Below, one piece after another: positions 6,960 through 24,492 of a stretch of DNA of 39,246 nucleotides. The first letter of the stretch is position 1; each line of letters begins with the position of its first letter. The notes under the pieces were generated by a model. That model saw only the letters and a program-made list of their open reading frames with translations. It was not told where the DNA came from and did not search any database. The DNA is taken from assembly GCA_937873695.1 (NCBI GenBank), contig CALMYL010000015.1:1-39246 (forward strand), written 5' to 3'. The position numbers and the translations under genes were made by a program. The stretch is from an uncultured Ignavibacteria bacterium. GTDB lineage: Bacteria > Bacteroidota > Ignavibacteria > Tepidaquicellales > OLB5.

Positions 6960-9353
6960 ATGGGACCATATTTAATTTACGGTGCATTTGCAGGCGCCAT
7001 TTTATCTTCTATACTTTATTTCCTTTCATCAGGCGGCACTGCTAAATACGTTAAACAGGCAAGAATGCTTTTTCATGTTTCTGCCATATTGACAATTTCT
7101 TCAACCGCGTTCCTGCTGTATCTTATTATGACGCACCAGTTCCAGTACACATATGTGTGGAACTATTCATCCCGCGACCTTCCGTGGAATCTGCTGCTGG
7201 CTACATTCTACGCAGGACAGGAAGGCAGTTTCCATTTATGGGCATTCCTGATGGCATTACTTGGAGTATTCTTACTCCCCTATCTTGCCAACAGAGATTC
7301 AGAAAAACTGCCCGGCAACGTACCAAATGATACTTACGAACCGCTTGTGATGGGAACATTTACTCTCCTTTCGGCTTTTTTACTTTTTATCATGATAATT
7401 AAATCACCGTACATGTTTGTATGGCAGTCTTTCCCGGCAGATGTTCAGGTAGGATTTATACCGGAAGACGGCCGCGGACTTAATCCACTGCTGCAAAATT
7501 TCTGGATGACTATTCACCCGCCAATATTATTCACGGGTTTTACATCTCTTTCTATACCATTCAGTTTTGCTATTGCCGCACTCATAAAGAACAGGTATGA
7601 TAAATGGATGAAACTGGCACTCCCCTGGACACTCTTTGGAGGAATGATATTAGGACTCGGCATCATGCTTGGCGGTTATTGGGCTTACGGCGTTCTTGGC
7701 TGGGGCGGTTACTGGGCATGGGATCCGGTTGAAAATTCATCATTTGTACCCTGGCTTCTTATCATTGGAGCAATTCATACAATGGTTGCCGAAGAAAAAG
7801 TAGGTAAATATAAAAGAACAAGTTTGATACTGTGCATACTTGCCTATGCTATGGTGCTGTATTCCACATTCTTGACTCGAAGCGGCGTTTTGGGTGATGC
7901 TTCAGTACATTCGTTTGTAGATCCCGGGCAGGAAGTATATCTGTTCCTTGTGGTTTTCCTCAGTCTATTTGCAGGCGGCGGACTTGCTCTCATTGGTTTC
8001 AGATACAAAAGTTTGAGAACAGAAAAGTCTGAAGGTCAGGTAAACCTTCTTTCAAGAGAGTCAGCATTATTTGTAGGAGCTATTACTATCTGCGCAACCG
8101 CGCTTGTGATTGCTGTTGGCACAAGCTGGCCAATTATCAGCAAAGGGACCGTTGAACCTGATTTTTATAACAGGATGAACCTGCCTCTGGCAATTCTTAT
8201 TGCCGCTATAAACGGCATCAGCATTCTGCTGAGATGGAAGCATTCTGATGAGAAGTCTTTTTTCAAGAGTCTGTATATCCCGCTTGGTTTTACCGGTGCA
8301 ATTACAATAGTGCTGGTAATAATGGGAGTAAGGGACTTTTTGATGGCTCTTCTTGCAGCAGCATCTTTCTTCGCGGTATTTATAAATGGCGAAATAGCTT
8401 ATACGATTTTCAGGAAAAATAAATCAAAGGCAGGCGCGTACATTGCTCACATGGGCGTGATGCTGCTTTTCCTTGGTGTAATTGGTTCAGCAAGATATTC
8501 CGAAGAGGAAAATGTCTCGTTGCCTCTGGGGGAGACCAAAGAAGTACTGGGAGGATATATGCTTACCTATAAAGGAGCCACAGAGATCCCAGGCGATCAT
8601 GAAAAATATCACTTTAATGTTATCGTACAGAAAGATGACAGGGCATTTTTGCTCCAACCGGTAATGTATTACAGTGAATATTCAGAAGGCATTATGAAGA
8701 ATCCGGATATCGCGAACCTGGTAACTAAGGACCTGTATCTCTCGCCAATGGCGCTGGAAGAGCCGGGACAATTCACACCGAACGATATCCACACATTTCA
8801 GAAGGGTGAAGAAAAAGAAATAAACGGTATGAAGATCAAGTTCATAGATTTTGACCGTTCGAAATTCAACCGTGATGATATGGAAGCCGGCACAATGAAT
8901 ATTATGGGTGCCGAGCTTGAAGTTACTATAGACGGGAAAACCGAAAAAGTAATAGCCGAACAGGAAATGTCACAAAACGGTTCTAATCCCATACCTGTAA
9001 AACCACTGGGAAATGATAGCTATACGTTCTACCTGACAAAATTAAGCGTAGCCGGTGAATCAACCGTTGATATTGCCGTAATTGATGATAACAAAATGCA
9101 GCAGGAGCAGGGCGCTCCGGAAACACTTGTGCTTACGGCAAGTGTGAAGCCTTTCATTAACCTGGTTTGGGGCGGCACAATAGTAATGGTTCTTGGATTT
9201 TACTTCTCGCTGATCGCCCGTCACCGCAGGATTAAATCAGAGACCCGTAAATCAGAGCATTTGAGCTCAAACGGCAATGGTCACTCCAACGGCAATGGTA
9301 ACAATAAATCTCACCACAACAAGAAACACAAACACGCCGAAGAAGAAATATAA
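6960..9353 (+). CDS. ccmF: Cytochrome c haem lyase subunit CcmF
   Basis: A 797-residue polytopic inner-membrane protein of the CcmF/CcsA haem-handling superfamily. The haem-binding WWD signature is clear at about residues 237-265 (GYWAYGVLGWGGYWAWDPVENSSFVPW), and the upstream IHPPILFTGF segment carries a conserved His. A large periplasmic domain follows (about 515-720, including DIANLVTKDLYLSP, typical of CcmF), then a last membrane helix (VWGGTIVMVLGFYFSLIA). CcmF, with CcmH in other bacteria, ligates haem to CXXCH motifs, which fits a locus with over 70 such motifs. It is longer than the usual ~650 residues. The last ~35 residues are a low-complexity Asn/Gly/His/Lys tail that may bind metal or be disordered. 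A terminator follows. Confidence 0.92.
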   Translation: MGPYLIYGAFAGAILSSILYFLSSGGTAKYVKQARMLFHVSAILTISSTAFLLYLIMTHQFQYTYVWNYSSRDLPWNLLLATFYAGQEGSFHLWAFLMALLGVFLLPYLANRDSEKLPGNVPNDTYEPLVMGTFTLLSAFLLFIMIIKSPYMFVWQSFPADVQVGFIPEDGRGLNPLLQNFWMTIHPPILFTGFTSLSIPFSFAIAALIKNRYDKWMKLALPWTLFGGMILGLGIMLGGYWAYGVLGWGGYWAWDPVENSSFVPWLLIIGAIHTMVAEEKVGKYKRTSLILCILAYAMVLYSTFLTRSGVLGDASVHSFVDPGQEVYLFLVVFLSLFAGGGLALIGFRYKSLRTEKSEGQVNLLSRESALFVGAITICATALVIAVGTSWPIISKGTVEPDFYNRMNLPLAILIAAINGISILLRWKHSDEKSFFKSLYIPLGFTGAITIVLVIMGVRDFLMALLAAASFFAVFINGEIAYTIFRKNKSKAGAYIAHMGVMLLFLGVIGSARYSEEENVSLPLGETKEVLGGYMLTYKGATEIPGDHEKYHFNVIVQKDDRAFLLQPVMYYSEYSEGIMKNPDIANLVTKDLYLSPMALEEPGQFTPNDIHTFQKGEEKEINGMKIKFIDFDRSKFNRDDMEAGTMNIMGAELEVTIDGKTEKVIAEQEMSQNGSNPIPVKPLGNDSYTFYLTKLSVAGESTVDIAVIDDNKMQQEQGAPETLVLTASVKPFINLVWGGTIVMVLGFYFSLIARHRRIKSETRKSEHLSSNGNGHSNGNGNNKSHHNKKHKHAEEEI

Positions 9354-9407: not shown

Positions 9408-9475
9408 GTAATGCCTTCAACAAAGAGTTTACATTTATTTACATCTTTCTTGGGATAATTTCACGATCGATGTAT

Positions 9476-9483: not shown

Positions 9484-9526
9484 TAATATAGTTCTTTTAG
9501 GAATTACAACATCAAACGACAAAGTC

Positions 9527-10309
9527 ATGAAAAATAAGATAATTATGATCATGGCTCTTGCTATCATCTCATCCATATCCGCTGCACTAAGTTTTATATC
9601 CGCTGAACCGAGCACAATAAACAAAATATTGCCTGTAAACCTTGACTTGTCATCGCTGACAGATGATGAACGTGAAAGTGTGATTTATATGCGCGAAGAA
9701 GAGAAACTTGCACGTGACGTGTATAAAATGATGTACGCAAAGTACGATCTGCGCCCGTTCAGGAACATTAAACAGGCTGAGCAAACACATATGGACCTTA
9801 TGAAAGACCTGCTGACAAAATACGGCATTGATGACCCTGTAAGCTCTGATGAAACAGGCAGCTTCACAAATGCGGAATTGAAAGAGCTTTATACAAAACT
9901 GATAGAACAAGGTAACTTATCACTGGTTGACGCATTAAAAGCCGGCGCACTTATCGAAGAAACAGATATAGCTGATCTTGATAAACAGCTTAAAGTCACT
10001 CAAAACAAAGATATTAAAGATACATATGACTACCTCAGGTACGGCTCTGAAAATCATTTGCGCGCATTTGTAAGGAACTTAAGATCCAACGGAGTAGAAT
10101 ATACACCGGTCGTGCTTTCTAAAGAAGACTTTGATAAAATTATCAGCGCAGAAAATTCAGGTAATAATAATAACCGCGGATATTTTAACTGCCGAAACAG
10201 ATGTGACGGCACAGGAAAAGGCAGAGGCAATGGAAGAGGTCTTGGTGATGGTTTCGGAAACGGCAGGTACTATAGAGATTGCCCGAATAGTAACTGCATA
10301 TACAGATAA
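9527..10309 (+). CDS. DUF2202 ferritin-like secreted protein
   Basis: The frame is open from 9470, but the ATG at 9527 is preferred because a signal peptide begins there (MKNKIIMIMALAIISSISAALSFISA). The mature protein is a four-helix DUF2202 domain: REEEKLARDVYKMMY, EQTHMDLM and ENHLRAFVRNL supply the repeated Glu and ExxH-type residues expected for a ferritin-like di-metal site. The last ~45 residues are a Gly/Asn/Arg-rich tail with several cysteines (CRNRCDGTGKGRGNGRG), unlike the helical core. The biochemical role of DUF2202 proteins is not settled; metal storage or oxidation is an inference. It is a single gene with its own terminator. Confidence 0.82.
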   Translation: MKNKIIMIMALAIISSISAALSFISAEPSTINKILPVNLDLSSLTDDERESVIYMREEEKLARDVYKMMYAKYDLRPFRNIKQAEQTHMDLMKDLLTKYGIDDPVSSDETGSFTNAELKELYTKLIEQGNLSLVDALKAGALIEETDIADLDKQLKVTQNKDIKDTYDYLRYGSENHLRAFVRNLRSNGVEYTPVVLSKEDFDKIISAENSGNNNNRGYFNCRNRCDGTGKGRGNGRGLGDGFGNGRYYRDCPNSNCIYR

Positions 10310-10734: not shown

Positions 10735-11583
10735 TCAATAATTCACCTGGCCGTTTATGTGCAATTCCTTATCAATTATCTGTCCCTGTCCGTTCATTAC
10801 AGAACTGTGGCAAACATAGCATGTAGTGCTTGTCATGAACGAAAAATGCGGTTCAGTAAATACACCGTTCACCCGCGGAGTTGGATTCCCTGTATTCGGG
10901 TCACCATGGCAAGTGCCGCAAACAACACTTCCCGGGTTTGTCCACACTCCAATAGCATCAGCATTTCCTTCCTTAAATGTACCATGACAATAAACGCTTG
11001 AGCAGGTTGCCGTATTTCTATCCCATGTGGGATTTGGTCTTATTGGTCCGCCAAGAGTATCATGAGCTCGGGTGCCGAACACTATTTCAGCAATACCGTC
11101 AGGATCGGGTCCGATATGGTTCGGGTCATCAAATCCGTTTATATCCCTGTGACAATCTTCGCAGCTAAGCGCGGCACCGTAAATTGAATAGCGATGACTC
11201 ATGTGAACGCCTACGCCCAATGAAGATACAGAAGTATCGCCATTAAGCGCGCTTGGCGGATTAGCATGATCTGAGTTGCCGTGGCATGTTCTGCAGTTCT
11301 CAGGTCCGTTGCTGTTTGAGTGGCAGCCTAAACAGCTTGAGCCTGAAGTACCGCCTGAGTAATCGCCCCCGTGGCAGGTTTTGCATGCACCAAGGTTCCA
11401 TTTGTTTGCAGCAATATAGAGTCCATGGAAATTACTGCTTGAAGGATTGCTCCAACCGGCTGCATGCGATCTTATTTCCGGTGCCAGTGTTACGCTATTA
11501 TCCAGTTCACTGCATCCCTGTGAGATCAGAAGCGAGACAATGAAAGCAATGAATAATCCGTAAAACAATATTATCTTTTTCAT
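10735..11583 (-). CDS. Seven-haem outer-membrane lipoprotein cytochrome c
   Basis: A 282-residue protein with a lipoprotein signal (LLISQGC, Cys24). Seven haem motifs in order: CKTCH, CLGCH, CRTCH, CEDCH, CSSVYCH (CX4CH), CGTCH, CYVCH. Mixed CXXCH and CX4CH spacing is typical of the Geobacter-type CxxxxCH/CxxCH outer-membrane cytochromes (OmcB-like), which face outward in porin-cytochrome complexes. It is the last gene of the operon, 20 bases after the 14-haem cytochrome and near the beta-barrel gene. This supports a porin, periplasmic cytochrome and outer-membrane cytochrome trio. It is smaller than the 12-haem OmcB. Surface exposure is inferred from family and context, not visible in sequence. 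Confidence 0.82.
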   Translation of the reverse strand: MKKIILFYGLFIAFIVSLLISQGCSELDNSVTLAPEIRSHAAGWSNPSSSNFHGLYIAANKWNLGACKTCHGGDYSGGTSGSSCLGCHSNSNGPENCRTCHGNSDHANPPSALNGDTSVSSLGVGVHMSHRYSIYGAALSCEDCHRDINGFDDPNHIGPDPDGIAEIVFGTRAHDTLGGPIRPNPTWDRNTATCSSVYCHGTFKEGNADAIGVWTNPGSVVCGTCHGDPNTGNPTPRVNGVFTEPHFSFMTSTTCYVCHSSVMNGQGQIIDKELHINGQVNY

Positions 11584-11603
11584 TACATGTAGAATTAATT
11601 TTT

Positions 11604-12893
11604 TTATTTCCTGAATTTATCGTTATCATTACTGTGGCAATAACCGCAGAATCCCCTGCCTGCAACGCCTGTTGGTTTTGCATTTGCATCTGTATGACAG
11701 CTGTAGCAGTTTGCGCCTTCGGTATCGTGCCATATTCCCTTTTCATCTCTCATAAAACCTGTTTCATGCGTTTTGGGGTTAGTTCCTTTAACGCCATCAT
11801 TATCAAAGTGGCATTTAACACATGCCGGGTCTCTGCCTTCAACATCGTGGCATGAAGCACATGATTCAATATCTTTCTTCGCAAGATCCGAATGCAGCCC
11901 GCCGCCTGTATTTACACCAAATGTAGTAAACCCTGCTACCTGGTGAGAGGTTGGCGTAATTCCTGTCACTAACTCGCCTCCGTTCTGGTGGCACTCAGCA
12001 CAGAATGTGCTTTGTTCATGGCAGGTTTTGCACTCAAAACTCTTTTGGTTTGCATCAAGTCCGTGGGTAAATTTGTAATTTAAACTATGCGCAGTAGTTA
12101 GTTTCTGCAGCGCAGTTCTGTCTGTTCTTACCCCGGTTTCTTTTGTATAATAGGGCGCATAGAATCCCTGTTTGGTATTGTTGCCGTTAAACCCAACCGG
12201 TGTGTGGCATGCCTGGCATAAATTATTGCTGTGGCACATCATACAGTTATTTTTACCGCTGGTCATATCAGAAACCTTATGCTCATTTAAGAAGTTGGGG
12301 CTTCTGTGATTTGAAGGCGTTAAATTGGTCAGGTTACTGTGGCAGCTTTCGCAGTTACCAGAGGCTTTTTGAGTATTGTGGCAGCTGTAGCAGCTTTCCA
12401 TGTTGGGAATTCCTGAAAAGACAACTTCTTTTGAATATTTTACGTTATCCATTCCGGCATGGCAATCAACACATTGTTTCTTTTCGGAATCGATGTGCTG
12501 CTTGTGCGAGAAAATGAGTTCGGTCTTATTGGTTTTAAGTTTTTTGTACACACCATCATAGTGGCACAGGTTACATGTTTTCTGGTCGTTTACATCATGG
12601 CAGCCGGTACAGTTAGCTTTCTTCGGGTTCAGGTTATCTTTTGATGAAACACTGGTCAGTGCGCCGGTATGGCAATCTTCACATTTAACTCCTGCATCTT
12701 TTACATGCAGCTTATGATCGAACTTAATGATCTTGCTGTTATCATATCTGACAGCTTCATTTTTTACATCAGAAAAAACTTTAGTAACTGAATTCTTATT
12801 GAGGCTTTTGGAATCTTTAACCAGGTAAGCTGTTGAGCTCAGGAAGATTATCAGGCCGGCAATAAGAAATATATATAGTTTAGTTATTTTCAT
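11604..12893 (-). CDS. Fourteen-haem cytochrome c
   Basis: A 429-residue protein with an N-terminal hydrophobic segment (about residues 5-24) that is either a signal peptide or a membrane anchor. Fourteen CXXCH motifs run the length of the protein, from CEDCH near residue 72 to CGYCH near the C-terminus. Numerous extra His residues (for example FDHKLH, FSHKQH) are suitable as distal haem ligands, as in cytochrome c7/c3-like repeats. It starts 14 bases after the beta-barrel gene, so the two are likely translated as a pair. By analogy with OmaB or MtrA it would sit in the periplasm or be plugged into the barrel to carry electrons through the outer membrane. The specific partner assignment is inference. 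Confidence 0.85.
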   Translation of the reverse strand: MKITKLYIFLIAGLIIFLSSTAYLVKDSKSLNKNSVTKVFSDVKNEAVRYDNSKIIKFDHKLHVKDAGVKCEDCHTGALTSVSSKDNLNPKKANCTGCHDVNDQKTCNLCHYDGVYKKLKTNKTELIFSHKQHIDSEKKQCVDCHAGMDNVKYSKEVVFSGIPNMESCYSCHNTQKASGNCESCHSNLTNLTPSNHRSPNFLNEHKVSDMTSGKNNCMMCHSNNLCQACHTPVGFNGNNTKQGFYAPYYTKETGVRTDRTALQKLTTAHSLNYKFTHGLDANQKSFECKTCHEQSTFCAECHQNGGELVTGITPTSHQVAGFTTFGVNTGGGLHSDLAKKDIESCASCHDVEGRDPACVKCHFDNDGVKGTNPKTHETGFMRDEKGIWHDTEGANCYSCHTDANAKPTGVAGRGFCGYCHSNDNDKFRK

Positions 12894-12907
12894 CTCACTA
12901 TTTCCTT

Positions 12908-14239
12908 TTATAATTTCTTAAACAGCCAGTAACTGAATCCCGCAAGGATCCTGGCATCTGATTTATAGATCCTGTTAATTAAAAATTGTCCCTGTATATC
13001 AACGCTGAACTGCGGAATTGGCCGGTATGTAATACCAAGCTGTCCGCTGAAAGCATTGACTTTATCTACTTCGTAATCACCCAGTTTGTAATTGGAATAA
13101 TTAACCGAAGCTGAACCGGAGATCATATTCTTGTAAATATCTTTCTGAATATAAGCTGATACACCATCAGACTCTCCAGAGTATCCCATATAACGGGTCA
13201 GATTAATTCCGTAATTTGGATGAGAGAATCCGGCCTGTATCTTTATGGAATTTGACTTCCCTGAAGAAGGACTTGTGACAAGTACATCGTTCTTTTCATA
13301 GAAAACAAAACCCGCTTTTCCGTAAATATTGATCCCGTTTTTCAGCGTGTAATCAAGACCTCCTGATACTTCCTGGTTTTTACTGTAATTGAATACCCAG
13401 AAAATACTGTTGTAATTGTAATGCGGTTCCCTGTAAATGTACTCGGCAAACCCGCGAAGCTCAGGATTGATCTGAACTCTTACATTCGCTTCAGCGCGGT
13501 ACAGCTTTTTCTGGGTTATATCAAAATATGCTTTGGCATAAAAATTATGCTTCATCATATATGTATAATTCAGGTCAAGCCCAACAAGCTGCTCGGCCGG
13601 ACCGTCAAAAGTAATTGTTCTTTCAACCAGGTTGTAAACGCTGTCTGCGCGGAAAGTGGTATAAGATTCAGGTGTTCTTCTTTTGTTTGAGTAACTTAAA
13701 GAAGCCATCAGGTCCTTTACGCCATAGAAGCTGAACATTCCCCCGAAATGATAATTCTTACTTACATCGGGGTACTTTTTGAATTCATATGTATACGGAG
13801 CGAGGGCGCCTCCGTATACACTGAACTGGTACTCTTTATTTTTTCCGGTTTTCACTTTCAGGAATAACCCGTCAAGTGTTCCCTTTCCTGTTCCGGCAAA
13901 AATATTCTGCCTTCCAAGTTTTACGTCAAGCAAACCGAACAGGTTAGACCCTTTTACATACGCATTATAAAACCGGTATGCAAAACCCCTGCCGGATTTA
14001 CCTACAAGATCCTCTTCGGTCTGTGCCAGTGTATTAAAGCTCCACTGCGCGCCTTTAACTTCCAGAAGGTAATTCTGGTAGCCCCTAAGGTGCATTGTCT
14101 TGGCGCTGGATTCGTTGGAAAGGCTGTCTATTCTTTGCCAGCCGTAAAAATAATTATTAAACCTGAAGTTTACTGATTGCGCAAAAATGCCTCCTGTGAA
14201 CATTAAAGCGCCAATCAGCAGCAATAGTTTAGGTTTCAT
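12908..14239 (-). CDS. Outer-membrane beta-barrel (candidate porin of a porin-cytochrome conduit)
   Basis: A 443-residue protein with a signal peptide (ends GGIFAQ), then a series of alternating amphipathic strands with aromatic girdles (for example NYLLEVKGAQWSFNTLAQ, LDVKLGRQNIFAG) and a terminal strand ending GFSYWLFKKL. No haem motif is present. Length and strand density suit a barrel of roughly 16-20 strands. It sits between the tetrahaem protein and the 14-haem/7-haem pair, where a porin is found in Geobacter-type porin-cytochrome (omb-oma-omc) and MtrCAB loci. I do not recognise a close named family from sequence alone. The conduit role rests on context. Confidence 0.78.
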   Translation of the reverse strand: MKPKLLLLIGALMFTGGIFAQSVNFRFNNYFYGWQRIDSLSNESSAKTMHLRGYQNYLLEVKGAQWSFNTLAQTEEDLVGKSGRGFAYRFYNAYVKGSNLFGLLDVKLGRQNIFAGTGKGTLDGLFLKVKTGKNKEYQFSVYGGALAPYTYEFKKYPDVSKNYHFGGMFSFYGVKDLMASLSYSNKRRTPESYTTFRADSVYNLVERTITFDGPAEQLVGLDLNYTYMMKHNFYAKAYFDITQKKLYRAEANVRVQINPELRGFAEYIYREPHYNYNSIFWVFNYSKNQEVSGGLDYTLKNGINIYGKAGFVFYEKNDVLVTSPSSGKSNSIKIQAGFSHPNYGINLTRYMGYSGESDGVSAYIQKDIYKNMISGSASVNYSNYKLGDYEVDKVNAFSGQLGITYRPIPQFSVDIQGQFLINRIYKSDARILAGFSYWLFKKL

Positions 14240-14303
14240 CTTAATTAAATTTTAGTGAATCGTTATACAGCTGATACTTAATGTATCTTTTTAGTGCCTC
14301 ATT

Positions 14304-14864
14304 TTACTGCGGTTTGTTATGCTGGATCTTCGGCCACATTTCATCATAATTGAAGCTCTTGAAAGTCGGGCTTTCTGAGTTATGACATCCTGTGCAGAAT
14401 GCGGCTTTATCATCATGAATGATAAGACCGTTCTCTTTGGCTTTTTCTTTATCCTTCATTATAGAAAGTTTTTTATATTCAGAACCCGCACCGTGGCAAG
14501 TTTCACACTGAACGCCGTCTTCTTTGCTGAATGTTGATTCAAATTCAGCGGGATCCATATCTTTACCCAGTACATGGCATTTTAAACATGCAGGTGTTTC
14601 AGCTGCAGGTGTAGTAAAGCCTTTATCTTTTGCTATCTTGTCAGCTTCAGGTGTCTGCAGCACTTTAAACGCATTAGAATGTTTGCTGTTCTGCCAGATA
14701 TCGAGCTGTTTGCCCTGGGCATCTGTTTTATGGCATGCGCCAACGCAGGTCTGAACCCCAACATATTTTCCTGTTGCGGCTTTGTGGGCATATTCAGCAA
14801 ATGTAAAACTGTATGCTGCAAGCGCAGCAACAAGCAGTACCGCCAATGTTATTTTCATTTTCAT
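14304..14864 (-). CDS. Tetrahaem cytochrome c554-like periplasmic protein
   Basis: A 186-residue protein with a signal peptide (residues ~1-23, ...SFTFA). Four haem motifs: CVGACH (CX3CH), CLKCH, CETCH, CTGCH. The first, with the following IWQNSKHSNAFKVL, matches the CxxCH...W..S.HA.A pattern of cytochrome c554/c-prime-type multihaem proteins. It is probably a soluble periplasmic electron shuttle between inner-membrane oxidoreductases and the outer-membrane conduit. Unlike nitrifier c554 there is no hydroxylamine oxidoreductase nearby. A GAGG Shine-Dalgarno lies before the ATG. The 111-base gap to the upstream 18-haem gene is the largest in the operon. Confidence 0.85.
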   Translation of the reverse strand: MKMKITLAVLLVAALAAYSFTFAEYAHKAATGKYVGVQTCVGACHKTDAQGKQLDIWQNSKHSNAFKVLQTPEADKIAKDKGFTTPAAETPACLKCHVLGKDMDPAEFESTFSKEDGVQCETCHGAGSEYKKLSIMKDKEKAKENGLIIHDDKAAFCTGCHNSESPTFKSFNYDEMWPKIQHNKPQ

Positions 14865-14975
14865 TTTTTTTACCTCTTCATTAATAGTTTTAATAATGAA
14901 TTTATTAATTTATAAATTTAAAAAAATTTCTGCTTTAAAAACAGCACTTTATAAAATACCGGTTAATTAAAGCGG

Positions 14976-17012
14976 TTATTTCACAAAATTCTTAAGTTTC
15001 TTCTTTTTCTCGTTCAAAACTGTCGTAATCAGGTCATAATTATGTACATAAATACTCTGATGAGAAGTTATCTGATTAAGTATTTTCTTCGCGTCTTCAA
15101 CTTCAGCTTTTTCTTCGTTGCTGAGTTCCATTCCTTTGGCTTTCTGTATCAATTCGCCCAGCTCACCCGAAATCTTTTTGACATCGGCTTTCCATTCGCC
15201 CATCTGGTCATCATAACCGGCTTCATGGCATTTCAGGCAGATCATTTTATCCGGCTTAACTACCTTATCAGCGCTTAGGTGACAATCACCGCAGCCGGCT
15301 CCGGCTGTTTTCATGAAATCAGGCTGGTTTTTACCGAAAACATTGCCATTGTAAACCTGCTCCTGGAACTTATGACACTTTGCGCAGCTTTCATTGGTTT
15401 TGCTGCTTGAGTGATGGCAATTATTACAGCTTTGTTTGGTGATAAAAGTAGTACCGTGCTTCTGCTCGTTTGAATGGCACTTATTGCACGAGATCTTGTT
15501 ATCCACAATATGTTTGTTATGCGAAAAATCCATATCAAACTTCTTCACATTTATTTCCTGTATACCCGAGTGGCAGCTGTAACATTCATTAGGTATGAAT
15601 TCAGACGCTGAAGTGAATTCCGGCAGCGAATTGGCAGCTCCGATTGTTGACAGCGCGTTTTTCATTAAACCGTATGCGCCTATGAGAAGCTTATCTGCAA
15701 ACTGAATATTATGTACACTCTTGCCAATTTCCACTATCTTTATATTGTGCTCAGCCTGTTTCAGCAGTTCTTCTGCCTGTGATTTCTTATCACTTGAAGA
15801 TCTTGAAATTACCGGTGCGACTGTTCTGTAAATTGAATTAATTGTAGCAACTCTCTTTGTCGTTCCGGCTTTCCATTGTTCAACCAGTTTATCATAGCCT
15901 GTGCCATGGCATTTTTCGCAAGCCTTACCGCCTGATTTGGATGTCTTGATATCCATCTTATCCATTTCGTGGAAAACGTGGCAGCCCCTGCAATTTATTC
16001 CGTTAAGGAACATTGCACTGGGAGATTTTTCCACATTAAACCCGTTCTGACCTGTGTACAAACTAACCATCTGCGTATGCGCATTGGTGTGGCAAGATTG
16101 GCAATCCGGCGGAGCTGAAGGATCCATCTGCTGTACCTTATGCTCTATCTGGCTGTGACATGTGAAACACTTCATGCTGTGTTTTTTTATATGGGTTTCG
16201 TGCATCAGTTTTGTATCAGTAAACTTTTCCAGTCTTTCGGTTTCAAAATGACACTGGAAACATCTTTCCTTGCCCACAGTTCCGCTGCCTGTTACAGTAT
16301 TTGAGTGGCAGTCCAGGCATGCCATTTTATTTTCAACTACACCGGTATGGTCATATCTGAAGCTTGCCATTTGCTCTTTGGTTTTATTTTCCCAGCTATG
16401 GCAGGTTTTGCAATCAGCCATTTTATCGTATTTATGTTCAGGGTCATCTGATTTTTTAAAATGGCATGTAAAACAAGTTGCTTCGGTCACTTCAATATGC
16501 GAACCCTGCACTACTTGTGAGTGACAGCTTGTACATTTAAGCGTTTTGCCCCTTCGCTGTTCCTGAAGGTGATTTTTGTGCGAGAATTGCACTCCTTTAA
16601 AATTGTAAGTAGAATCCTTAATGCTCTGCATCACATGACAGCCTGAGCGGTCACATGTGTTATCCGGAATTTCAGCCCAGGGTTTGCGCTTTTTATATGA
16701 CTGAGAAACATAGCTTACTATCTGTACCAAACCGTTCAGCTTACCGCGAACAGTACCGGAAATTCCCGGTTCAAAATGACATTCAACGCAATCAACTTTA
16801 TTATGAGCCGAAGTCCTCCAGCTTTGATAGAATGTTTCCATGTAATGGCAAGTAGGACAGAATGCAGGCCTTGAAGTATATTCTGCTGAGCCTGCCAGAA
16901 GTATAAAAAATAACCCCAGATAAATACCGGTAAACAAAAGGAATCTTCTATAGCCTCGTACCTTTTTGAAAAATCTGACCGGTTTTACATCCTTTGTTTT
17001 TTCTTCGCTCAT
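14976..17012 (-). CDS. Eighteen-haem NapC/NirT-like membrane-anchored cytochrome
   Basis: A 678-residue protein with one N-terminal membrane helix (about 24-44) followed by SRPAFCPTCHYMETFYQSW and NKVDCVECHFEPG, the hallmark of NapC/NirT/NrfH quinol-oxidising cytochromes. Haem motifs: 17 CXXCH plus one CX4CH (CDRSGCH), 18 in all. Two haem-rich blocks are separated by a long haem-free, helical linker (about 385-470), and a lysine-rich helical tail follows the last motif. NapC proteins have 4-5 haems, so this is a large extension of the theme: quinol oxidation joined to a periplasmic haem wire. It lies 58 bases downstream of the b-type cytochrome. A role as a second quinol exit in the same conduit is inferred. 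Confidence 0.85.
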   Translation of the reverse strand: MSEEKTKDVKPVRFFKKVRGYRRFLLFTGIYLGLFFILLAGSAEYTSRPAFCPTCHYMETFYQSWRTSAHNKVDCVECHFEPGISGTVRGKLNGLVQIVSYVSQSYKKRKPWAEIPDNTCDRSGCHVMQSIKDSTYNFKGVQFSHKNHLQEQRRGKTLKCTSCHSQVVQGSHIEVTEATCFTCHFKKSDDPEHKYDKMADCKTCHSWENKTKEQMASFRYDHTGVVENKMACLDCHSNTVTGSGTVGKERCFQCHFETERLEKFTDTKLMHETHIKKHSMKCFTCHSQIEHKVQQMDPSAPPDCQSCHTNAHTQMVSLYTGQNGFNVEKSPSAMFLNGINCRGCHVFHEMDKMDIKTSKSGGKACEKCHGTGYDKLVEQWKAGTTKRVATINSIYRTVAPVISRSSSDKKSQAEELLKQAEHNIKIVEIGKSVHNIQFADKLLIGAYGLMKNALSTIGAANSLPEFTSASEFIPNECYSCHSGIQEINVKKFDMDFSHNKHIVDNKISCNKCHSNEQKHGTTFITKQSCNNCHHSSSKTNESCAKCHKFQEQVYNGNVFGKNQPDFMKTAGAGCGDCHLSADKVVKPDKMICLKCHEAGYDDQMGEWKADVKKISGELGELIQKAKGMELSNEEKAEVEDAKKILNQITSHQSIYVHNYDLITTVLNEKKKKLKNFVK

Positions 17013-17070
17013 TTTAATTTTTTGATTTCAATAGTTCAATAACTCCACACATGCAGTGTGTCTTTATTAC

Positions 17071-17898
17071 TCACTTGGTTTCGTTTCCGCTGTTTAATTC
17101 TTTTTCATTTTCCCCGGAAGCCTTTTCTATGAGAGCTTTTTTTTCTTCTTCAAACTTTTTCATAGCTTCTGCTTCTTTTTCGGCTTCTGCTTTTTCTTCC
17201 TGCATTTTTTTATCCAGCTCTTCAAGCTCCAGGGGGTGTTCATGCTCCATCTGCTCCCGGGTCAGGTAACCCTTAGACCACGCTTTATTCATTGGCGCAA
17301 CATCGGGATTAATGAAAATGAAATAAAAATGCCAGACAAGTATCGCCAGTGAAGCGAGTATCGCTTCGTAATAATGGATAGCGGTTGATATATCCATACC
17401 CGTTGTACCTACTATCTTCAGGAAAGTATTTTCAAACCATAATATAAAGCCTGTAGCTCCCATAATGACCGTACCCCATACAACTGCCCAGTACTCCATT
17501 TTTTCAATATAACTGAACCTGCCAAGTTTAGGCTTTACTTCAGTTCTGCCTATAAGATAGAGCATTGAATCCTTAAAATCGAAAAGGTCCTGTTTGCGGG
17601 GCAGAAAATCCCTTACAAGCTGTTTTCCCCTGGGTGTAAATAATATATAATACAGATGATACAATGAAGCTCCTATCATTACTATAGAGGCAACCCTGTG
17701 AACAATACCGCGGGCTTCGAAAGCATTTTCACCTATAATATAAACTATCCATTTCACCCAGAACGCTTCCGGAAATTTGAGCCCGAAACCTGTAAGTATA
17801 AGCGTAATGAAACTTGTGAACAAAAGGAAGTGCTGAACCCTTTCATTCGCGCTCATTCTTAAGTACTTTATATCTTCAAATTTGTCCTTGCCGCTCAT
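17071..17898 (-). CDS. Membrane b-type cytochrome (FdhI / Ni-Fe-hydrogenase b-subunit-like)
   Basis: A 275-residue integral membrane protein with about four helices (roughly 24-42, 65-87, 136-156, 174-198). Helix-associated histidines 23, 67, 81, 175 and 190 are candidate axial ligands for two b haems. The FSYIEKMEYWAVVWGTVIMGATGF segment is typical of the formate dehydrogenase gamma / cytochrome b561-like superfamily that exchanges electrons with quinones. The C-terminal ~65 residues are a Lys/Glu-rich coiled coil. Its ATG overlaps the stop of the 19-haem gene by four bases (ATGA), indicating translational coupling, so the two likely form one complex, much like the Geobacter Cbc inner-membrane b/c pairs. 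That analogy is mine. Confidence 0.85.
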   Translation of the reverse strand: MSGKDKFEDIKYLRMSANERVQHFLLFTSFITLILTGFGLKFPEAFWVKWIVYIIGENAFEARGIVHRVASIVMIGASLYHLYYILFTPRGKQLVRDFLPRKQDLFDFKDSMLYLIGRTEVKPKLGRFSYIEKMEYWAVVWGTVIMGATGFILWFENTFLKIVGTTGMDISTAIHYYEAILASLAILVWHFYFIFINPDVAPMNKAWSKGYLTREQMEHEHPLELEELDKKMQEEKAEAEKEAEAMKKFEEEKKALIEKASGENEKELNSGNETK

Positions 17899-19823
17899 TT
17901 CTTCTTTTTGCCGTTCTTAGCGCCGTTTAACTTTTTCTTATGCTGACGTTTCCTGTAGAAATCCAGTACGTTATGGAAAACCATAAATCCAATTAACCCG
18001 AAGATCATAAACATGTAGAACCTTGTTACCCAGAAAACCATTGGCGAATCTTCTTCGGGGTTTGTTAAGTGGATTTTTTTAGTGAACAATACTTCAGTCG
18101 CGCCCGGATGACACTTTCCGCATGTCTGCGGAAGGTTCTTTTTATTTATCGTCGAAAGTGTATCCGTAGATGGTCTTACATTGTGATTACCATGGCAGCT
18201 TTCGCAGTTAGCGGCTTCTTTTCCGCCGCCCCTGATAGCCAGCCCATGGAAACTTTCGCTGAAAGTTTCCGATACCTGCGTGGGCAGATCATTTCTTTCA
18301 ACAAGCTCAACAGAGCTGTGGCAGTTTGAGCACAATGTCACTATCTCACGTGACTTTTCAAGTTTATTATCAACATTCTTGGTTACAATTCCATGATTGC
18401 CGTGGCAGTTGTTGCAGGTAGGCGCGTCTTTGTTATCTTTACTTACGCCAACCTGGTGAATGCTCCCAACGTAATCCTTCAGCTGGTTTACGTGGCAGCC
18501 TGACTGACCGCACGTATTAGCTATATTCTTCTTGCTTATTTTACTGTCGGGATTATCGGTGCTTTCCATTTCGTGGGCGCCGTGGCACTGGTAACAGGTA
18601 GGCGCATCATAATTTCCGTCCTTCAAAGCCTGATAATGTACGCTGTTCTGGTAACCGGTTATCAGCTCTTCTTCGCCTTTGTAATTCTTATGAGGAATCT
18701 TGCCATCTTTATGACAGCTTAAACATTTATCAGTCAGATTCAGCTTTGAGAAATCGTTTGAAAGCAATGTTGACTGAATATCATGCTCACCGTGGCAATC
18801 TGTACAAGTCGGGGCTTTATCATTACCCTTTGCAAGCTCCTGCCCGTGCTTGGACTTTTTGAAATTCTCTACAGTTTCTTTGTGGCACTTGCCGCATGTT
18901 TCCAGCAGCCTGGCGCGATTGGTGGAAGCCTTTGGATTATTAGGCTCCTGTATCATATGATTGCCGTGGCAATCAACACATCCTGCAGCTTCGAGCAGTC
19001 CGTCCTTTTCTACCGAAGCGTGAATACTTGTTTTGTAATGCTGAACGAATTTAGCCGAGCCTTTTTCTTCACCCGGGAATTTCTTCTCGTCAAGATGGCA
19101 CTCAAGGCATGCCTGTGATTCAACAGAAATTTTTCCGCGGATTATTTTATGCGAGCCATGGCAATCTGTGCAGGTGGGTGCGTTCTGGTTACCCTTGTTC
19201 ATAACCTGCATGTGAATGCTGTTATTAAAATTCTTCTGATGCTCTCCATGACATTTGCCGCAGGTTGCCGCAACTTCATTTTTCGCTATCTTTTTTACTA
19301 CATGTCCCCCGCCATGGCAGCTTTCGCATGTAACATTATTCTTCGCGTGCACGCTTTCAGAGTAATGCTGGATGTTCTGTTTTTTGTGGCAGCTTAAGCA
19401 GCTTTTCGTCTGCTCTTTGGCAAATTCTTTAGCCGGTTTTATGTCATGCTTTGTATGGCAGTCGTAACATTTTACTTTTGCGTGAACATTTGTCTCAATA
19501 TTTTTTGCTTCTTTGTGGCATGTAATACAGTTTACGGGCTGCGGCGATTTTGAATGCGGCAGCTCATCGGGATTGTAATTTTCATGACAATCTTCGCACT
19601 CTGCCATGTTATGTACAGATTTTTTATATCCATCGGGATTCACAAACAGCGAAACTTTCTTGCCGCCCTTATCCATAGTTAAATCTTTATCCTCATGGCA
19701 GCTAAGGCAAACATCAGTACTTGCTGTTTTTATGCGTGAATAGCTATCTGCAAATATCAGAAGTCCGCTTACCAGCAGAACCGGCAACAGGACAAACAAA
19801 ATATTTTTATAATAGCTTTTCAT
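17895..19823 (-). CDS. Nineteen-haem cytochrome c anchored in the inner membrane
   Basis: A 642-residue protein with an N-terminal signal/anchor (about 7-25) and a C-terminal membrane helix (about 597-619) followed by a very basic cytoplasmic tail (RKRQHKKKLNGAKNGKKKK). Between them are 18 CXXCH motifs and one CX4CH (CGQSGCH). Many occur as repeated CxxCHGxH units (TDCHGSH, TDCHGEH, YQCHGAH, NNCHGNH), where the second His can ligate a neighbouring haem. Repeat spacing suggests expansion by internal duplication. It is translationally coupled to the b-type cytochrome, so quinol-derived electrons would pass from haem b to this periplasmic haem array. I know of no fixed gene name for this architecture. 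Confidence 0.87.
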   Translation of the reverse strand: MKSYYKNILFVLLPVLLVSGLLIFADSYSRIKTASTDVCLSCHEDKDLTMDKGGKKVSLFVNPDGYKKSVHNMAECEDCHENYNPDELPHSKSPQPVNCITCHKEAKNIETNVHAKVKCYDCHTKHDIKPAKEFAKEQTKSCLSCHKKQNIQHYSESVHAKNNVTCESCHGGGHVVKKIAKNEVAATCGKCHGEHQKNFNNSIHMQVMNKGNQNAPTCTDCHGSHKIIRGKISVESQACLECHLDEKKFPGEEKGSAKFVQHYKTSIHASVEKDGLLEAAGCVDCHGNHMIQEPNNPKASTNRARLLETCGKCHKETVENFKKSKHGQELAKGNDKAPTCTDCHGEHDIQSTLLSNDFSKLNLTDKCLSCHKDGKIPHKNYKGEEELITGYQNSVHYQALKDGNYDAPTCYQCHGAHEMESTDNPDSKISKKNIANTCGQSGCHVNQLKDYVGSIHQVGVSKDNKDAPTCNNCHGNHGIVTKNVDNKLEKSREIVTLCSNCHSSVELVERNDLPTQVSETFSESFHGLAIRGGGKEAANCESCHGNHNVRPSTDTLSTINKKNLPQTCGKCHPGATEVLFTKKIHLTNPEEDSPMVFWVTRFYMFMIFGLIGFMVFHNVLDFYRKRQHKKKLNGAKNGKKKK

Positions 19824-19870
19824 ATTAAAATCTGATCAGTAAAAATGCACATGTTTTGCTTTTCAATTAT

Positions 19871-20233
19871 TCAGTTTTCAGACTTCCCGGTCTTCCCGTA
19901 GATCTCTTCTACTGCTTTCTTAAGTTCGCTCAGTTTAAAAGGTTCTGACATATATTTAACGCCATTTGTTTCGGTATACTCTGTGCCAAGTGAGGGCAGG
20001 CAAATTATTGAAATTGAACTGAATTTCTGCTTTATCTTACTCTTCAGCTCTGAATCAATATCCTTATCAATAATAAGGCAATTTACATCATTATTAAATG
20101 ACTTAATGAATTCCTCATTGATGCTTTCGCCGCTTGTGCAGCTGATGTTATACTGCCCCGGATCAAGTGTTTTCCTGATCAGCTGGCAGATCTCCGGTTT
20201 TATGCTTAGTATATGTACTTTAAAATTACTCAT
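19871..20233 (-). CDS. Degenerate CheY-like receiver protein heading the cytochrome operon
   Basis: A 120-residue protein with the alpha/beta outline of a receiver domain: HILSIKPEICQLIRKTL, CLIIDKDID (Asp at the phosphorylation position), SIICLPSLG and a final KYMSEPFKLSELKKAVEEIYG. The N-terminal acidic pair is missing (SIKPE in place of DDE), and the conserved Lys of the KPF motif is Glu (SEPF). Phosphorylation is therefore doubtful and it may act as a pseudo-receiver. There is no output domain. It is the first gene after the sigma-54-like promoter, 47 bases before the 19-haem cytochrome. A regulatory or adaptor role is a guess. Confidence 0.7.
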   Translation of the reverse strand: MSNFKVHILSIKPEICQLIRKTLDPGQYNISCTSGESINEEFIKSFNNDVNCLIIDKDIDSELKSKIKQKFSSISIICLPSLGTEYTETNGVKYMSEPFKLSELKKAVEEIYGKTGKSEN

Positions 20234-20260
20234 ATCAATATAACTGTACTATAATTACAT

Positions 20261-20276
20261 ACAAATTACGTGCCAC
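20261..20276 (-). promoter_or_regulatory. Sigma-54-like promoter of the cytochrome operon
   Basis: Read on the minus strand: TGTGGCACGTAATTTGTA. It has the -24 TGGCACG and a -12 TTG with the GG-N10-G spacing of RpoN promoters (GG at 20274-20273, -12 G at 20262). The C of the canonical -12 GC is T. The predicted start near 20250 is 17 bases before the first gene's ATG. The same layout precedes the T9SS cytochrome gene. Confidence 0.6.
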
Positions 20277-20476: not shown

Positions 20477-21211
20477 ATGGAACTTGTATGGAAAGCTTTA
20501 TCGGATAAGACGCGCAGAAAGATACTTGACTTGCTGCGCGAAAAAGAAAGAACCACCGGTGAGCTATGCAAACACTTCAGAAAGCTTACAAGGTATGGAG
20601 TTATGAAACACCTGAACATTCTGCATAACGCTAACCTTATAATCATTAAGCGTGAAGGCAAAAACAGGTGGAATTACATAAACCCGCTCCCTATCCAGGA
20701 AATTTATGAAAGATGGGTAAAAAAATATGAAGCGGGATGGAGCAGCTATTTAATAAATTTCAAAAACAATATGGAGAAAAACGAAATGGAAAAAATTAAA
20801 TTTCAGGTAGCAGTAAGGATCGATAAACCTATTGCGGAAGTATTCAGGGCGTTTACCGATAAAGAAACGATCAGCAAATATTTTGTAAGCGCTGCAAGCG
20901 CGCCAATAAAGGCTGTTGGCGATAAGATCACCTGGTCATGGGGTGAACATAAAGCTGAAATTGTTATTACTGAATTCGAAGAGAACAAACGCATAGCATT
21001 CACCTGGCCGGGTTACAAGGTCAACTATGACGTGCACGCATTATTTATCTTTGAAGAAGTTGACGGCAAAACAAGGGTTTCTGTGACAGAAGAAGGCTGG
21101 AAAGATGACGAAGCGGGTATCAACAGCTCACTTATGAACAATGCCGGCTGGAAAGAAATGCTCCTTGGAATGAAGGCGTGGGTAATGTATGGTGTAGATC
21201 TGAGGAAGTAA
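20477..21211 (+). CDS. ArsR-type HTH fused to an AHSA1/SRPBCC domain
   Basis: A 244-residue fusion. Residues ~1-95 form an ArsR-family winged helix (LVWKALSDKTRRKILDLLREKERTTGELCKHF...RYGVMKHLNILHNANLI, then a wing with KREGKNRWNYI). Residues ~105-244 form an AHSA1-like START/SRPBCC domain (VAVRIDKPIAEVFRAFTDKETISKYF ... ITWSWG ... VSVTEEGW). The two modules are usually encoded by adjacent genes, so here the ligand-binding fold is joined to the DNA-binding part. There are no metal-binding Cys in the HTH, so a small hydrophobic or stress ligand is more likely than a metal. The linker KNNMEKNEMEK contains internal Met codons that look like the relic start of a separate AHSA1 gene. A strong operator lies directly upstream. 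Confidence 0.85.
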   Translation: MELVWKALSDKTRRKILDLLREKERTTGELCKHFRKLTRYGVMKHLNILHNANLIIIKREGKNRWNYINPLPIQEIYERWVKKYEAGWSSYLINFKNNMEKNEMEKIKFQVAVRIDKPIAEVFRAFTDKETISKYFVSAASAPIKAVGDKITWSWGEHKAEIVITEFEENKRIAFTWPGYKVNYDVHALFIFEEVDGKTRVSVTEEGWKDDEAGINSSLMNNAGWKEMLLGMKAWVMYGVDLRK

Positions 21212-23100: not shown

Positions 23101-24441
23101 TTATTCCAGCCCATATTCCTTGATCTTCTTGTAAAGGGTTTTGCGGTCGATGCCAAGTATCTTTGCTGCCTGCAGCTTGTTCCAGCCGTTCTCTTCAAGC
23201 ACTTTGCGGATGTGCACTTTTTCAAGGTCCTTTAGTTCCATATTGCCGCCCATTGAGATATTTTCTTCATCATTCCCGTTCGATACCAGGAACCTGAAAT
23301 TATGCCTGCCAAGCATATCAGTATCAGATGAGATAAGGGCACGCTCGATAACATTTTCAAGCTCTCTCACGTTCCCCTGCCAGTGGTGGTCAGTTAATGT
23401 TTCAATGGCATCACCTTTTAAGGCAAACTGCCTGTTCATTTTAGCAGAGATCTTCTTCACAAAATGATCTGCTAACAAAGGAATATCATCTTTTCTTTCA
23501 TCAAGCGGCGGCAGTGATATAGATACTGTTGCGATACGGTAGAATAAGTCTTCGCGGAATTTCTTTTCATCTATCATTTCCTTTATGTTTCTGTTTGTCG
23601 CGCTCAACAGCCTTACATCAACTTTCTTTACTTTATCGCTGCCAAGCGGTTTAATTTCCCAGGTTTCAATTACGCGCAGCAACTTTGACTGCAGGTTAAA
23701 AGGCATTTCGGCAATTTCATCAAGCAGCAGAGTGCCGCCATGCGCAAGCTCAAACACTCCTTTTTGCGCGTCAATAGCCCCGGTGTAAGCGCCCTTTGTG
23801 TGACCGAAGAGTTCACTCTCAAGCAGGTTATCGGGTATGGCACTGCAGTTAATGGCAATAAACGGACCCTCGCCGCGCGGTGAGTTATGGTGGATAGCCT
23901 TTGCTACAAGCTCTTTTCCTGTGCCGCTTTGACCTTCGATAAGAACATTCGCGTCGGTCCGGGCGACATTCCTTATCATATCATACACCCGGAGCATCTT
24001 CCTGCTCCTGCCGATTATGCTGCTGAACGAAGCGGAGTTATCCACTTGCGACCGCAGATTAGCCACTTTTTTATTGAGCTCAATATTTTCTACCGCCTTA
24101 TCAAATTTAAGGGTGAACTCTTCAAGGTTAAACGGTTTTCCTATGTAATCAAAAGCTCCCAGCTTCATGGCTTCTACTGCGGAATCAATTGAACCGAAGC
24201 CTGTTATCATGATAAATAATGTGTCTTCCCTCTTAGCCTTCAGCAGATCAAGACCTGAAACATCGGGCATCTGTAAGTCTGAGATCACGATATCAAACTC
24301 ATCGTTTTCAATCTTAGCTAATGCGGCCTTTGAATCGTTTTCAGTTAGCGGGTAATATCCCTTCTTTTCAAGTACTTTCTTAAGCAGGATCGTGGAATTA
24401 ACTTCATCATCAACGATCAGTATTTTAATATCCTGTGTTAT
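23101..24441 (-). CDS. NtrC-type sigma-54-dependent response regulator (apparent ATA start)
   Basis: The reading frame is intact back to 24441, giving 446 residues, the usual size of this family. Receiver 1-~118 (VDDE, phospho-acceptor Asp55, Thr80, Lys102); AAA+ domain with Walker A GQSGTGKE (~170-177), sigma-54 contact loop GAYTGA (217-222, a variant of GAFTGA) and Walker B LLLDE (Asp241-Glu242); Fis-type HTH at the C-terminus (KLQAAKILGIDRKTLYKKI). There is no ATG, GTG or TTG before the receiver. The best start is ATA at 24441, preceded by AGGGAG and giving MTQDIKILIVDDE; the GTG at 24288 would delete half of the receiver. It lies beside a sigma-54-like promoter, so it probably activates the nearby cytochrome genes. 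The soluble PAS kinase at 28197-29414 is a candidate partner. Confidence 0.88.
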   Translation of the reverse strand: MTQDIKILIVDDEVNSTILLKKVLEKKGYYPLTENDSKAALAKIENDEFDIVISDLQMPDVSGLDLLKAKREDTLFIMITGFGSIDSAVEAMKLGAFDYIGKPFNLEEFTLKFDKAVENIELNKKVANLRSQVDNSASFSSIIGRSRKMLRVYDMIRNVARTDANVLIEGQSGTGKELVAKAIHHNSPRGEGPFIAINCSAIPDNLLESELFGHTKGAYTGAIDAQKGVFELAHGGTLLLDEIAEMPFNLQSKLLRVIETWEIKPLGSDKVKKVDVRLLSATNRNIKEMIDEKKFREDLFYRIATVSISLPPLDERKDDIPLLADHFVKKISAKMNRQFALKGDAIETLTDHHWQGNVRELENVIERALISSDTDMLGRHNFRFLVSNGNDEENISMGGNMELKDLEKVHIRKVLEENGWNKLQAAKILGIDRKTLYKKIKEYGLE

Positions 24442-24492
24442 GTCAGCAGTCTCCCTATTAGAAGATTGAGTTGAATAAAAAATTCTACATTA

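What the first reader, a model, noticed from the sequence alone, without database searches (positions are those of the whole stretch)
10735..20233. 62-haem operon that looks like a complete quinol-to-outside electron conduit
Seen: eight consecutive minus-strand genes with short gaps or overlaps, carrying 19 + 18 + 4 + 14 + 7 haem motifs, a five-histidine membrane cytochrome b, a NapC/NirT-like N-terminus, a haem-free beta-barrel and a cytochrome lipoprotein. Known: porin-cytochrome conduits (Geobacter omb-oma-omc, Shewanella MtrCAB) need a barrel plus periplasmic and outer multihaem cytochromes, and b/c pairs such as Geobacter Cbc complexes oxidise quinol. Inference: this is a self-contained extracellular electron transfer route. 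The inner-membrane pieces are far larger than the classic 4-5-haem ones, and I do not know a described system with this gene order.
Basis: partly seen in the sequence, partly recalled or inferred. Interest (0 to 1): 0.92.

Follow-up and report, generated by a model that had tools for sequence, protein, structure and literature searches.

The report
Bacterial electron wire to the outside
A single operon in an uncultured Ignavibacteria bacterium encodes the parts needed to carry respiratory electrons from the inner membrane, through a pore in the outer membrane, to the cell surface; the outer part is a known kind of device, but it is widespread in this whole bacterial class and is paired in different species with different inner-membrane electron sources.

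Summary
Best reading: a porin-cytochrome (Pcc) conduit in one operon with a split 19-haem CbcL-like quinol oxidoreductase and an 18-haem NapC/NrfH-like cytochrome. The outer core (c554, barrel, 14-haem, outer cytochrome) is not new: Shi et al. 2014 describe the same set in Ignavibacterium album, and a 2021 bioanode paper shows a seven-gene cluster of matching make-up. Beyond that I found: the barrel occurs in 187 of 293 Ignavibacteria genomes and almost nowhere else in a phylum sample; barrel and 14-haem genes are neighbours in 44 of 44 loci; the inner-membrane partner is swapped (split or fused CbcL, ImcH, Rieske/cytochrome-b/11-haem, NrfCD), at least 21 changes of set on the conduit tree; the operon starts at a conserved sigma-54 promoter with a conserved NtrC-type activator upstream; the Fe(III)-reducing isolate Melioribacter roseus carries the conduit. 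Direction (outward) and physical fit of cytochrome and barrel are inferred, not shown.

The parts
10735..11583 (-). 7-haem outer c-type cytochrome with lipoprotein signal (SQGC|SELD) and a CxxxxCH haem site; proposed surface exit of the conduit
   Evidence: TIGR01904/PF09698 GSu CxxxxCH family; haem sites 98-100% conserved in 46 sequences; lipobox in most homologues
11604..12893 (-). 14-haem periplasmic c-type cytochrome with signal peptide; proposed wire inserted in the barrel
   Evidence: adjacent to the barrel in 44 of 44 loci; like IALB_1838 (400 aa, 14 haem motifs, PMC4245776)
12908..14239 (-). haem-free outer-membrane beta-barrel (about 22 membrane strands), porin of the conduit
   Evidence: AlphaFold2 pLDDT 82.7, 24 strand elements of which two are a short hairpin; best structural alignments to plug-containing 22-strand TonB-receptor barrels, Z about 20, rmsd about 4 A; no significant Pfam, NCBIfam or PDB sequence match
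14304..14864 (-). tetrahaem c554-like periplasmic cytochrome, proposed electron carrier into the conduit
   Evidence: PF13435 3e-15; next to the conduit in 41 of 44 loci; like IALB_1840 (periplasmic c-Cyt, PMC4245776)
14976..17012 (-). 18-haem NapC/NrfH-like membrane-anchored cytochrome (one N-terminal helix, long periplasmic multihaem extension)
   Evidence: PF03264 3e-10, TIGR03153 1.2e-14; single helix 24-42; present in 20 of 44 loci
17071..17898 (-). cytochrome b561/FdnI-like membrane subunit, half of a split CbcL-like quinol oxidoreductase
   Evidence: PF01292 3.7e-14; TIGR01583 2.5e-16; 5 invariant His in 24 sequences; 56% identical to the C-terminal domain of a fused homologue
17895..19823 (-). 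19-haem cytochrome with N-terminal signal and C-terminal membrane helix, other half of the split CbcL-like enzyme; 4-base overlap with cytochrome b
   Evidence: 44% identical over 639 aa to the N-terminal part of the fused 869-aa, 19-haem homologue in L098
19871..20233 (-). short receiver-like protein, first gene of the operon; keeps a conserved Asp56 but lacks the usual acidic pair and Lys (probably degenerate)
   Evidence: precedes the 19-haem gene in most loci that carry the split module
20260..20275 (-). sigma-54 (-24/-12) promoter TGGCAC-N5-TTGTA, 26 bases before the first ATG
   Evidence: conserved 21-30 bases upstream of the same gene in 13 of 17 relatives' loci with usable upstream sequence; score 10 of 11, reached by 1 of 3600 shuffles
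23101..24489 (-). NtrC-type sigma-54 activator (receiver, AAA+, Fis HTH); start codon not resolved, range is stop to stop
   Evidence: PF00158 1e-69; orthologue upstream of the receiver gene in 12 loci, 55-91% identity
28197..29489 (-). PAS histidine kinase, likely partner of the NtrC-type activator
   Evidence: orthologue (57%) directly upstream of the activator and the operon in L102
24705..26849 (+). 9-haem cytochrome with a type IX secretion sorting tail, possible cell-surface partner
   Evidence: PF18962 and TIGR04183; homologues lie in 9 of 44 conduit loci, next to the barrel in L031 and L032
24659..24674 (+). sigma-54-like site TGGCAC-N5-TTGAG, 30 bases before the 9-haem gene
   Evidence: a similar site in one close relative (L044), weaker elsewhere: suggestive only
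6960..9353 (+). CcmF-type cytochrome c assembly protein, conserved neighbour (not in the operon)
   Evidence: PF01578, PF16327; CcmF within 21 of 44 loci

Best explanation
The operon builds an envelope-spanning electron route for anaerobic respiration with an extracellular acceptor. Quinol is oxidised in the inner membrane by a two-gene CbcL-like enzyme (cytochrome b at 17071-17898 plus the 19-haem cytochrome at 17895-19823) and probably also by, or with the help of, the NapC/NrfH-like 18-haem cytochrome. Electrons hop through these very long haem chains and the tetrahaem c554-like protein to the 14-haem cytochrome, which sits in the roughly 22-strand barrel and carries them through the outer membrane to the 7-haem surface lipoprotein, and perhaps on to a type-IX-secreted 9-haem cytochrome. 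Transcription starts at a sigma-54 promoter under an NtrC-type two-component system. Shown: gene content, conservation, homology of each part, barrel fold (predicted), promoter conservation. Inferred: quinol site, order of electron transfer, insertion of the 14-haem protein in the barrel, outward direction, acceptor (Fe(III) or another extracellular acceptor).
For: Haem motifs and gene order confirmed. Barrel + 14-haem adjacent in 44/44 loci, outer cytochrome 43/44, c554 41/44. Cytochrome b plus 19-haem genes are fused as one 869-aa CbcL-like protein in L098. Next to the same conduit other species carry ImcH-like, Rieske/cytochrome b/11-haem and NrfC/NrfD modules, all quinol-reactive families; CbcL and ImcH are the Geobacter quinol oxidases for extracellular acceptors (PMC6295460, PMC9129911). 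The Fe(III)-reducing isolate Melioribacter roseus carries the conduit: contig length 3,300,414 equals the published chromosome, cluster in L080, Fe(III) as acceptor stated in PMC3534657. Sigma-54 promoter and activator conserved. Ignavibacteria and Bacteroidetes with porin-cytochrome clusters are found enriched on anodes (PMC7399161, PMC8258643).
Against: I. album, which has the outer core, was reported unable to use Fe(III) or Mn(IV) oxides as terminal acceptor (PMC4245776). No usable structure of the 14-haem protein was obtained (pLDDT 37), so fit in the barrel is untested. Nothing in the sequence fixes the direction. The genome also encodes ACIII and a haem-copper oxidase (L113), so this is not its only respiration. 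In the M. roseus record the CbcL gene is broken into two frames.
Confidence: 0.72

Rival explanations
1. The same conduit runs inward: the surface cytochromes take electrons from Fe(II) or another extracellular donor and the CbcL-like enzyme reduces quinone, as proposed for MtoAB/MtoC.
For: CbcL/MtrH/MtoC homologues occur in Fe(II) oxidisers as well as Fe(III) reducers with no distinguishing feature (PMC6295460). The genome has an oxidase to dispose of the electrons (L113). One survey lists Ignavibacteriales with both oxidation and reduction genes (PMC8478452).
Against: ImcH-like genes lie next to the conduit in 8 of 44 loci, and ImcH is so far linked only to quinol oxidation (PMC6295460). Cultured M. 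roseus is an organotroph that reduces Fe(III). CO2 fixation was not looked for here.
Confidence: 0.12
2. It is an extracellular or outer-membrane electron route for a soluble acceptor (for example selenite, tellurite, another oxyanion or humics), not for minerals.
For: The Geobacter ext cluster joins a porin, multihaem cytochromes, Rieske and cytochrome b and affects selenite/tellurite, not Fe(III), reduction (PMC5877670). The bc-type cytochrome b of the relatives' module resembles NCBIfam ExtP. I. album does not use Fe(III) or Mn(IV) oxides.
Against: No molybdopterin or other catalytic reductase is encoded in the operon; no NCBIfam Ext model reaches its cut-off for the window proteins.
Confidence: 0.13
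3. The barrel is an ordinary porin or transporter that merely neighbours a periplasmic multihaem chain; there is no trans-outer-membrane electron transfer.
For: Its nearest solved folds are TonB-receptor and substrate-porin barrels; sequence libraries do not name it.
Against: It is next to the 14-haem gene in 44 of 44 loci across many families, is nearly class-wide, and has the same arrangement as the I. album Pcc cluster. Identity to any solved transporter is 6-12%.
Confidence: 0.03

Closest known systems
Porin-cytochrome (Pcc) cluster of Ignavibacterium album, IALB_1840-1839-1838-1837 (Shi et al. 2014, PMC4245776)
   Same: Same set and apparent order: periplasmic c-cytochrome, porin, 14-haem periplasmic cytochrome (400 aa), outer cytochrome with an atypical haem site. 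A genus met in the class search has a 400-aa, 14-haem protein in the same order (L101).
   Different: The I. album cluster as described has no inner-membrane module; the window joins a split 19-haem CbcL, an 18-haem NapC-type protein and a receiver-like gene in the same operon. I. album's own sequence was not compared here.
Geobacter Pcc conduits OmbB-OmaB-OmcB
   Same: Barrel plus periplasmic and outer multihaem cytochrome; atypical haem sites in outer cytochromes are also known there.
   Different: 14 rather than 8 haems in the periplasmic member, 7 rather than 12 in the outer one; in Geobacter the quinol oxidases are encoded elsewhere (own knowledge). Sequence relation of the barrels not tested.
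CbcL/MtrH/MtoC quinone oxidoreductases
   Same: Multihaem periplasmic part plus di-haem FdnI-like membrane part; fused homologues of the window pair exist in relatives. Clusters of mtrH/mtoC with mtrAB are known (PMC6295460).
   Different: Split into two genes; 19 instead of 9 haems (Geobacter); accompanied by an 18-haem NapC-type protein.
Seven-gene EET cluster of the Bacteroidetes_1 bioanode MAG (PMC8258643)
   Same: Six cytochromes, three with membrane helices, plus one beta-barrel; the figure legend has a b-type cytochrome; best matches in Bacteroidetes and Ignavibacteriae. Very probably the same operon type.
   Different: No sequence was available here to prove identity; its authors call it previously uncharacterised.
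Geobacter extHIJKLMNOPQS (selenite/tellurite) cluster (PMC5877670)
   Same: Porin, multihaem cytochromes and quinol-side subunits (Rieske, cytochrome b) in one cluster, like the relatives that carry the bc-type module.
   Different: Different porin, rhodanese and selenoprotein cytochrome; the window itself has no bc-type module.

Membership tests
Pcc (porin-cytochrome) conduit | porin-like outer-membrane protein gene always next to a periplasmic multihaem c-cytochrome gene | tested here: met
   44 of 44 loci; barrel fold predicted with pLDDT 82.7
Pcc (porin-cytochrome) conduit | outer-membrane multihaem cytochrome in the cluster (most cases) | tested here: met
   7-haem lipoprotein, 43 of 44 loci; surface exposure itself not tested
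Pcc (porin-cytochrome) conduit | about 18-22 membrane strands, smaller than MtrB | tested here: met
   24 strand elements, two of them a short hairpin, so about 22; aligns to 22-strand receptors
Pcc (porin-cytochrome) conduit | cytochrome inserted in the barrel, electrons cross the membrane | not testable with these tools
   no multimer prediction; 14-haem monomer model failed
MtrCAB/MtoAB/DmsEF conduit | periplasmic decahaem protein of the DmsE/MtrA family (TIGR03508) over cut-off | tested here: not met
   14-haem protein 15.7 bits against a cut-off of 192.2
MtrCAB/MtoAB/DmsEF conduit | MtrB/PioB-type barrel | tested here: inconclusive
   no Pfam or NCBIfam match; structural lists cannot exclude it
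CbcL/MtrH/MtoC | multihaem c domain joined to FdnI/b561-like di-haem membrane domain | tested here: met
   PF01292 and TIGR01583 hits, five invariant His; fused homologue in L098 aligns to both window genes; in the window the two are separate genes
CbcL/MtrH/MtoC | direct sequence match to a characterised member (Geobacter CbcL) | not tested
NapC/NirT/NrfH | N-terminal anchor plus haem domain over the Pfam cut-off | tested here: met
   PF03264 40.6 bits, cut-off 24.1
NapC/NirT/NrfH | NrfH equivalog cut-off | tested here: not met
   TIGR03153 54.5 bits against 134.2: a relative, not NrfH itself
sigma-54 controlled operon | -24/-12 element at a fixed distance from the first gene, with an activator nearby | tested here: met
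   no transcription start was measured

The most novel reading that the evidence does not exclude
In Ignavibacteria the outer-membrane conduit is a class-wide, vertically kept socket into which at least five kinds of quinol oxidase (split CbcL, fused CbcL, ImcH, Rieske/cytochrome b/11-haem, NrfCD with 13-15 haems) are plugged and unplugged, often several in one operon, so that one exit serves quinol oxidases suited to acceptors of different potential; in the window, the 19- and 18-haem chains may bridge much of the periplasm without a diffusible carrier, and the exit is prolonged by a type-IX-secreted cytochrome under the same sigma-54 control.
Probability: 0.35. Interest if true: 0.72.

Novelty: new variant of a known kind. 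Interest (0 to 1): 0.55.

Why it matters
If right, extracellular electron exchange is a normal trait of a large, mostly uncultured class that is common in anammox sludge, groundwater and sediments, and not a specialty of a few metal reducers. The swapping of inner-membrane modules next to one fixed conduit gives a natural experiment on which quinol oxidase suits which acceptor potential, a question that in Geobacter is studied with scattered genes (ImcH, CbcL). It also supplies a barrel family and a sigma-54 signature that annotation libraries do not name, and ties the system to a cultured Fe(III) reducer in which it can be tested.

Tried and rejected
AlphaFold2 of the 14-haem protein with 27 sequences failed (pLDDT 37); no fold search was run on it. 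MtrB does not appear among the listed structural matches of the barrel; this is not evidence of no relation. PDB sequence searches named only distant multihaem proteins. Sigma-70 promoter and terminator scans gave no more sites than shuffles and were not used. The idea that the genes beside the L114 CbcL were a bc complex was dropped: they are Sulf_transp proteins. The ArsR/AHSA1 gene at 20477-21211 was considered as a regulator and set aside because the NtrC-type activator, not it, is conserved upstream of the operon.
Full report
OBSERVATION. Counting CxxCH and the wider CxxxCH/CxxxxCH sites gives 19, 18, 4, 14 and 7, 62 in all. Shuffled versions of the same proteins give 0.04-0.44 on average and at most 4. 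The sites are conserved in relatives.

WHAT THE PARTS ARE. P0006 (275 aa) matches prokaryotic cytochrome b561 (PF01292) and the formate dehydrogenase gamma family (TIGR01583) with five invariant histidines. P0007 (642 aa, 19 haems) has a signal at its N-terminus and one membrane helix at its C-terminus. In L098 these two are one 869-aa protein: P0007 aligns at 44% over 639 aa to its front, P0006 at 56% over 220 aa to its back. So the window has a split member of the CbcL/MtrH/MtoC type; published members range over 3-23 haem motifs (PMC6295460). P0005 (678 aa, 18 haems) starts with a NapC/NrfH anchor and haem domain and goes on as a long multihaem chain. P0004 is a c554-like tetrahaem protein. 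P0002 is a 14-haem exported cytochrome of the c7/c3 kind; it is not in the DmsE/MtrA family by its cut-off. P0001 is a 7-haem lipoprotein of the GSu CxxxxCH family. P0003 has no database family but folds as a barrel of about 22 strands; its closest structural matches are TonB-receptor barrels, which hold a plug domain that P0003 lacks, so there is in principle room for a cytochrome (the room argument is inference). P0008 is a short receiver-like protein with one conserved Asp but not the rest of the usual phosphorylation site.

CONSERVATION. The barrel is found in 33 of 39 near relatives, in 187 of 293 genomes of the class and 102 of 154 genera, and in a 392-genome sample of the phylum only in this class apart from one borderline hit. 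Named records are all Ignavibacteria or Bacteroidetes MAGs. In 44 cluster contexts the 14-haem gene accompanies the barrel in all, the outer cytochrome in 43 and c554 in 41. Contigs end early in some, so counts of inner-membrane genes are lower bounds.

EXCHANGEABLE INNER-MEMBRANE MODULES. Next to this same core lie: split CbcL (24 loci), fused CbcL (8), multihaem NapC (20), Rieske + cytochrome b + 11-haem (12), ImcH-like 7-haem proteins with three helices (8), NrfC + NrfD with a 13-15-haem cytochrome (5), or nothing (9); 17 loci have two or more types (families checked). On a tree of the concatenated 14-haem and barrel proteins the set of modules changes at least 21 times, the bc-type module at least 8. 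Within the window's own genus, L022, L027, L028 and L029 differ in modules while their conduit proteins stay about 71-90% identical to the window's. A 2018 survey found no mtrAB/mtoAB next to imcH (PMC6295460); here a different porin stands next to ImcH-like genes. In the window's genome itself an FeS-NrfD-13-haem cluster lies 2.4 kb beyond the window end on the same contig (C15 41679-45007).

REGULATION. A sigma-54 element TGGCACGTAATTTGTA lies at 20260-20275 (minus), 26 bases before the first ATG. One such match in 39 kb is not significant by itself, but in relatives with usable upstream sequence a site scoring 8 or more of 11 lies 21-30 bases before the same gene in 13 of 17 loci (a few of these loci are near-duplicates), against about 6% of shuffles. 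An NtrC-type activator orthologous to window 23101-24489 stands upstream of the receiver gene in 12 loci, in all but L022 as the next gene, and a kinase orthologous to window 28197-29489 upstream of that in L102. The T9SS-tailed 9-haem cytochrome at 24705-26849 has a similar element 30 bases upstream, conserved only weakly.

FUNCTION. Quinol oxidation at the inner membrane, long-range transfer and exit through the barrel is the simplest account. Support from physiology: Melioribacter roseus, identified here by exact chromosome length (3,300,414 bp), uses Fe(III) (PMC3534657) and has c554-barrel-14-haem-9-haem with CbcL, 13-haem and NrfCD genes alongside. Ignavibacteria and a Bacteroidetes MAG with comparable clusters are enriched on anodes. 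Against Fe(III) as the only acceptor: I. album does not use Fe(III) or Mn(IV) oxides. Direction, acceptor and insertion of the cytochrome remain inferred.

NOVELTY. The outer core was described in 2014 and an operon of matching make-up in 2021, so this is not a categorically new system. The variant features are the single operon with split 19-haem CbcL and 18-haem NapC, the sigma-54 control, the class-wide distribution and the repeated exchange of quinol oxidases beside one conduit; I did not find these in the papers that could be searched, which are an open-access subset.

Noticed in passing
G000:C15:41679-45007 (L112:3680-7008), just beyond the window end: FeS protein, NrfD-like protein and a 13-haem cytochrome (41% identical to one beside the M. 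roseus conduit): a second quinol-reactive module about 21 kb from the operon.
   Followed up: partly
L114:5759-10917 (G000:C29): A fused 9-haem CbcL-like protein with two Sulf_transp (YeeE-like) genes and an 8-haem Cytochrome_cB protein, a possible sulfur or nitrogen compound reductase cluster.
   Followed up: partly
L113:2915-17001 (G000:C23): Alternative complex III and haem-copper oxidase genes: the organism has an aerobic chain too.
   Followed up: partly
window 34256-38977: Run of small outer-membrane barrel proteins, four with Pfam barrel hits and one (37312-38052) without any.
   Followed up: no
window 9470-10309: DUF2202 protein between the operon end and CcmF; a similar-sized gene holds this place in several relatives.
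   Followed up: no
window 1655-5851: 1398-aa receiver/multi-PAS/HisKA_2 sensor kinase.
   Followed up: no
L035 (G027:C6): Two tandem copies of the c554-barrel-14-haem-outer-cytochrome core, one directly behind a bc-type module.
   Followed up: partly
L080:9294-11695 (M. roseus): The CbcL-like gene reads in two frames (16 haems + part of the membrane domain, then the rest): a real frameshift or a sequencing error.
   Followed up: partly
   Followed up: no
window 29781-30956 and 31779-34022: A Fic-domain protein and a heavy-metal P-type ATPase.
   Followed up: no
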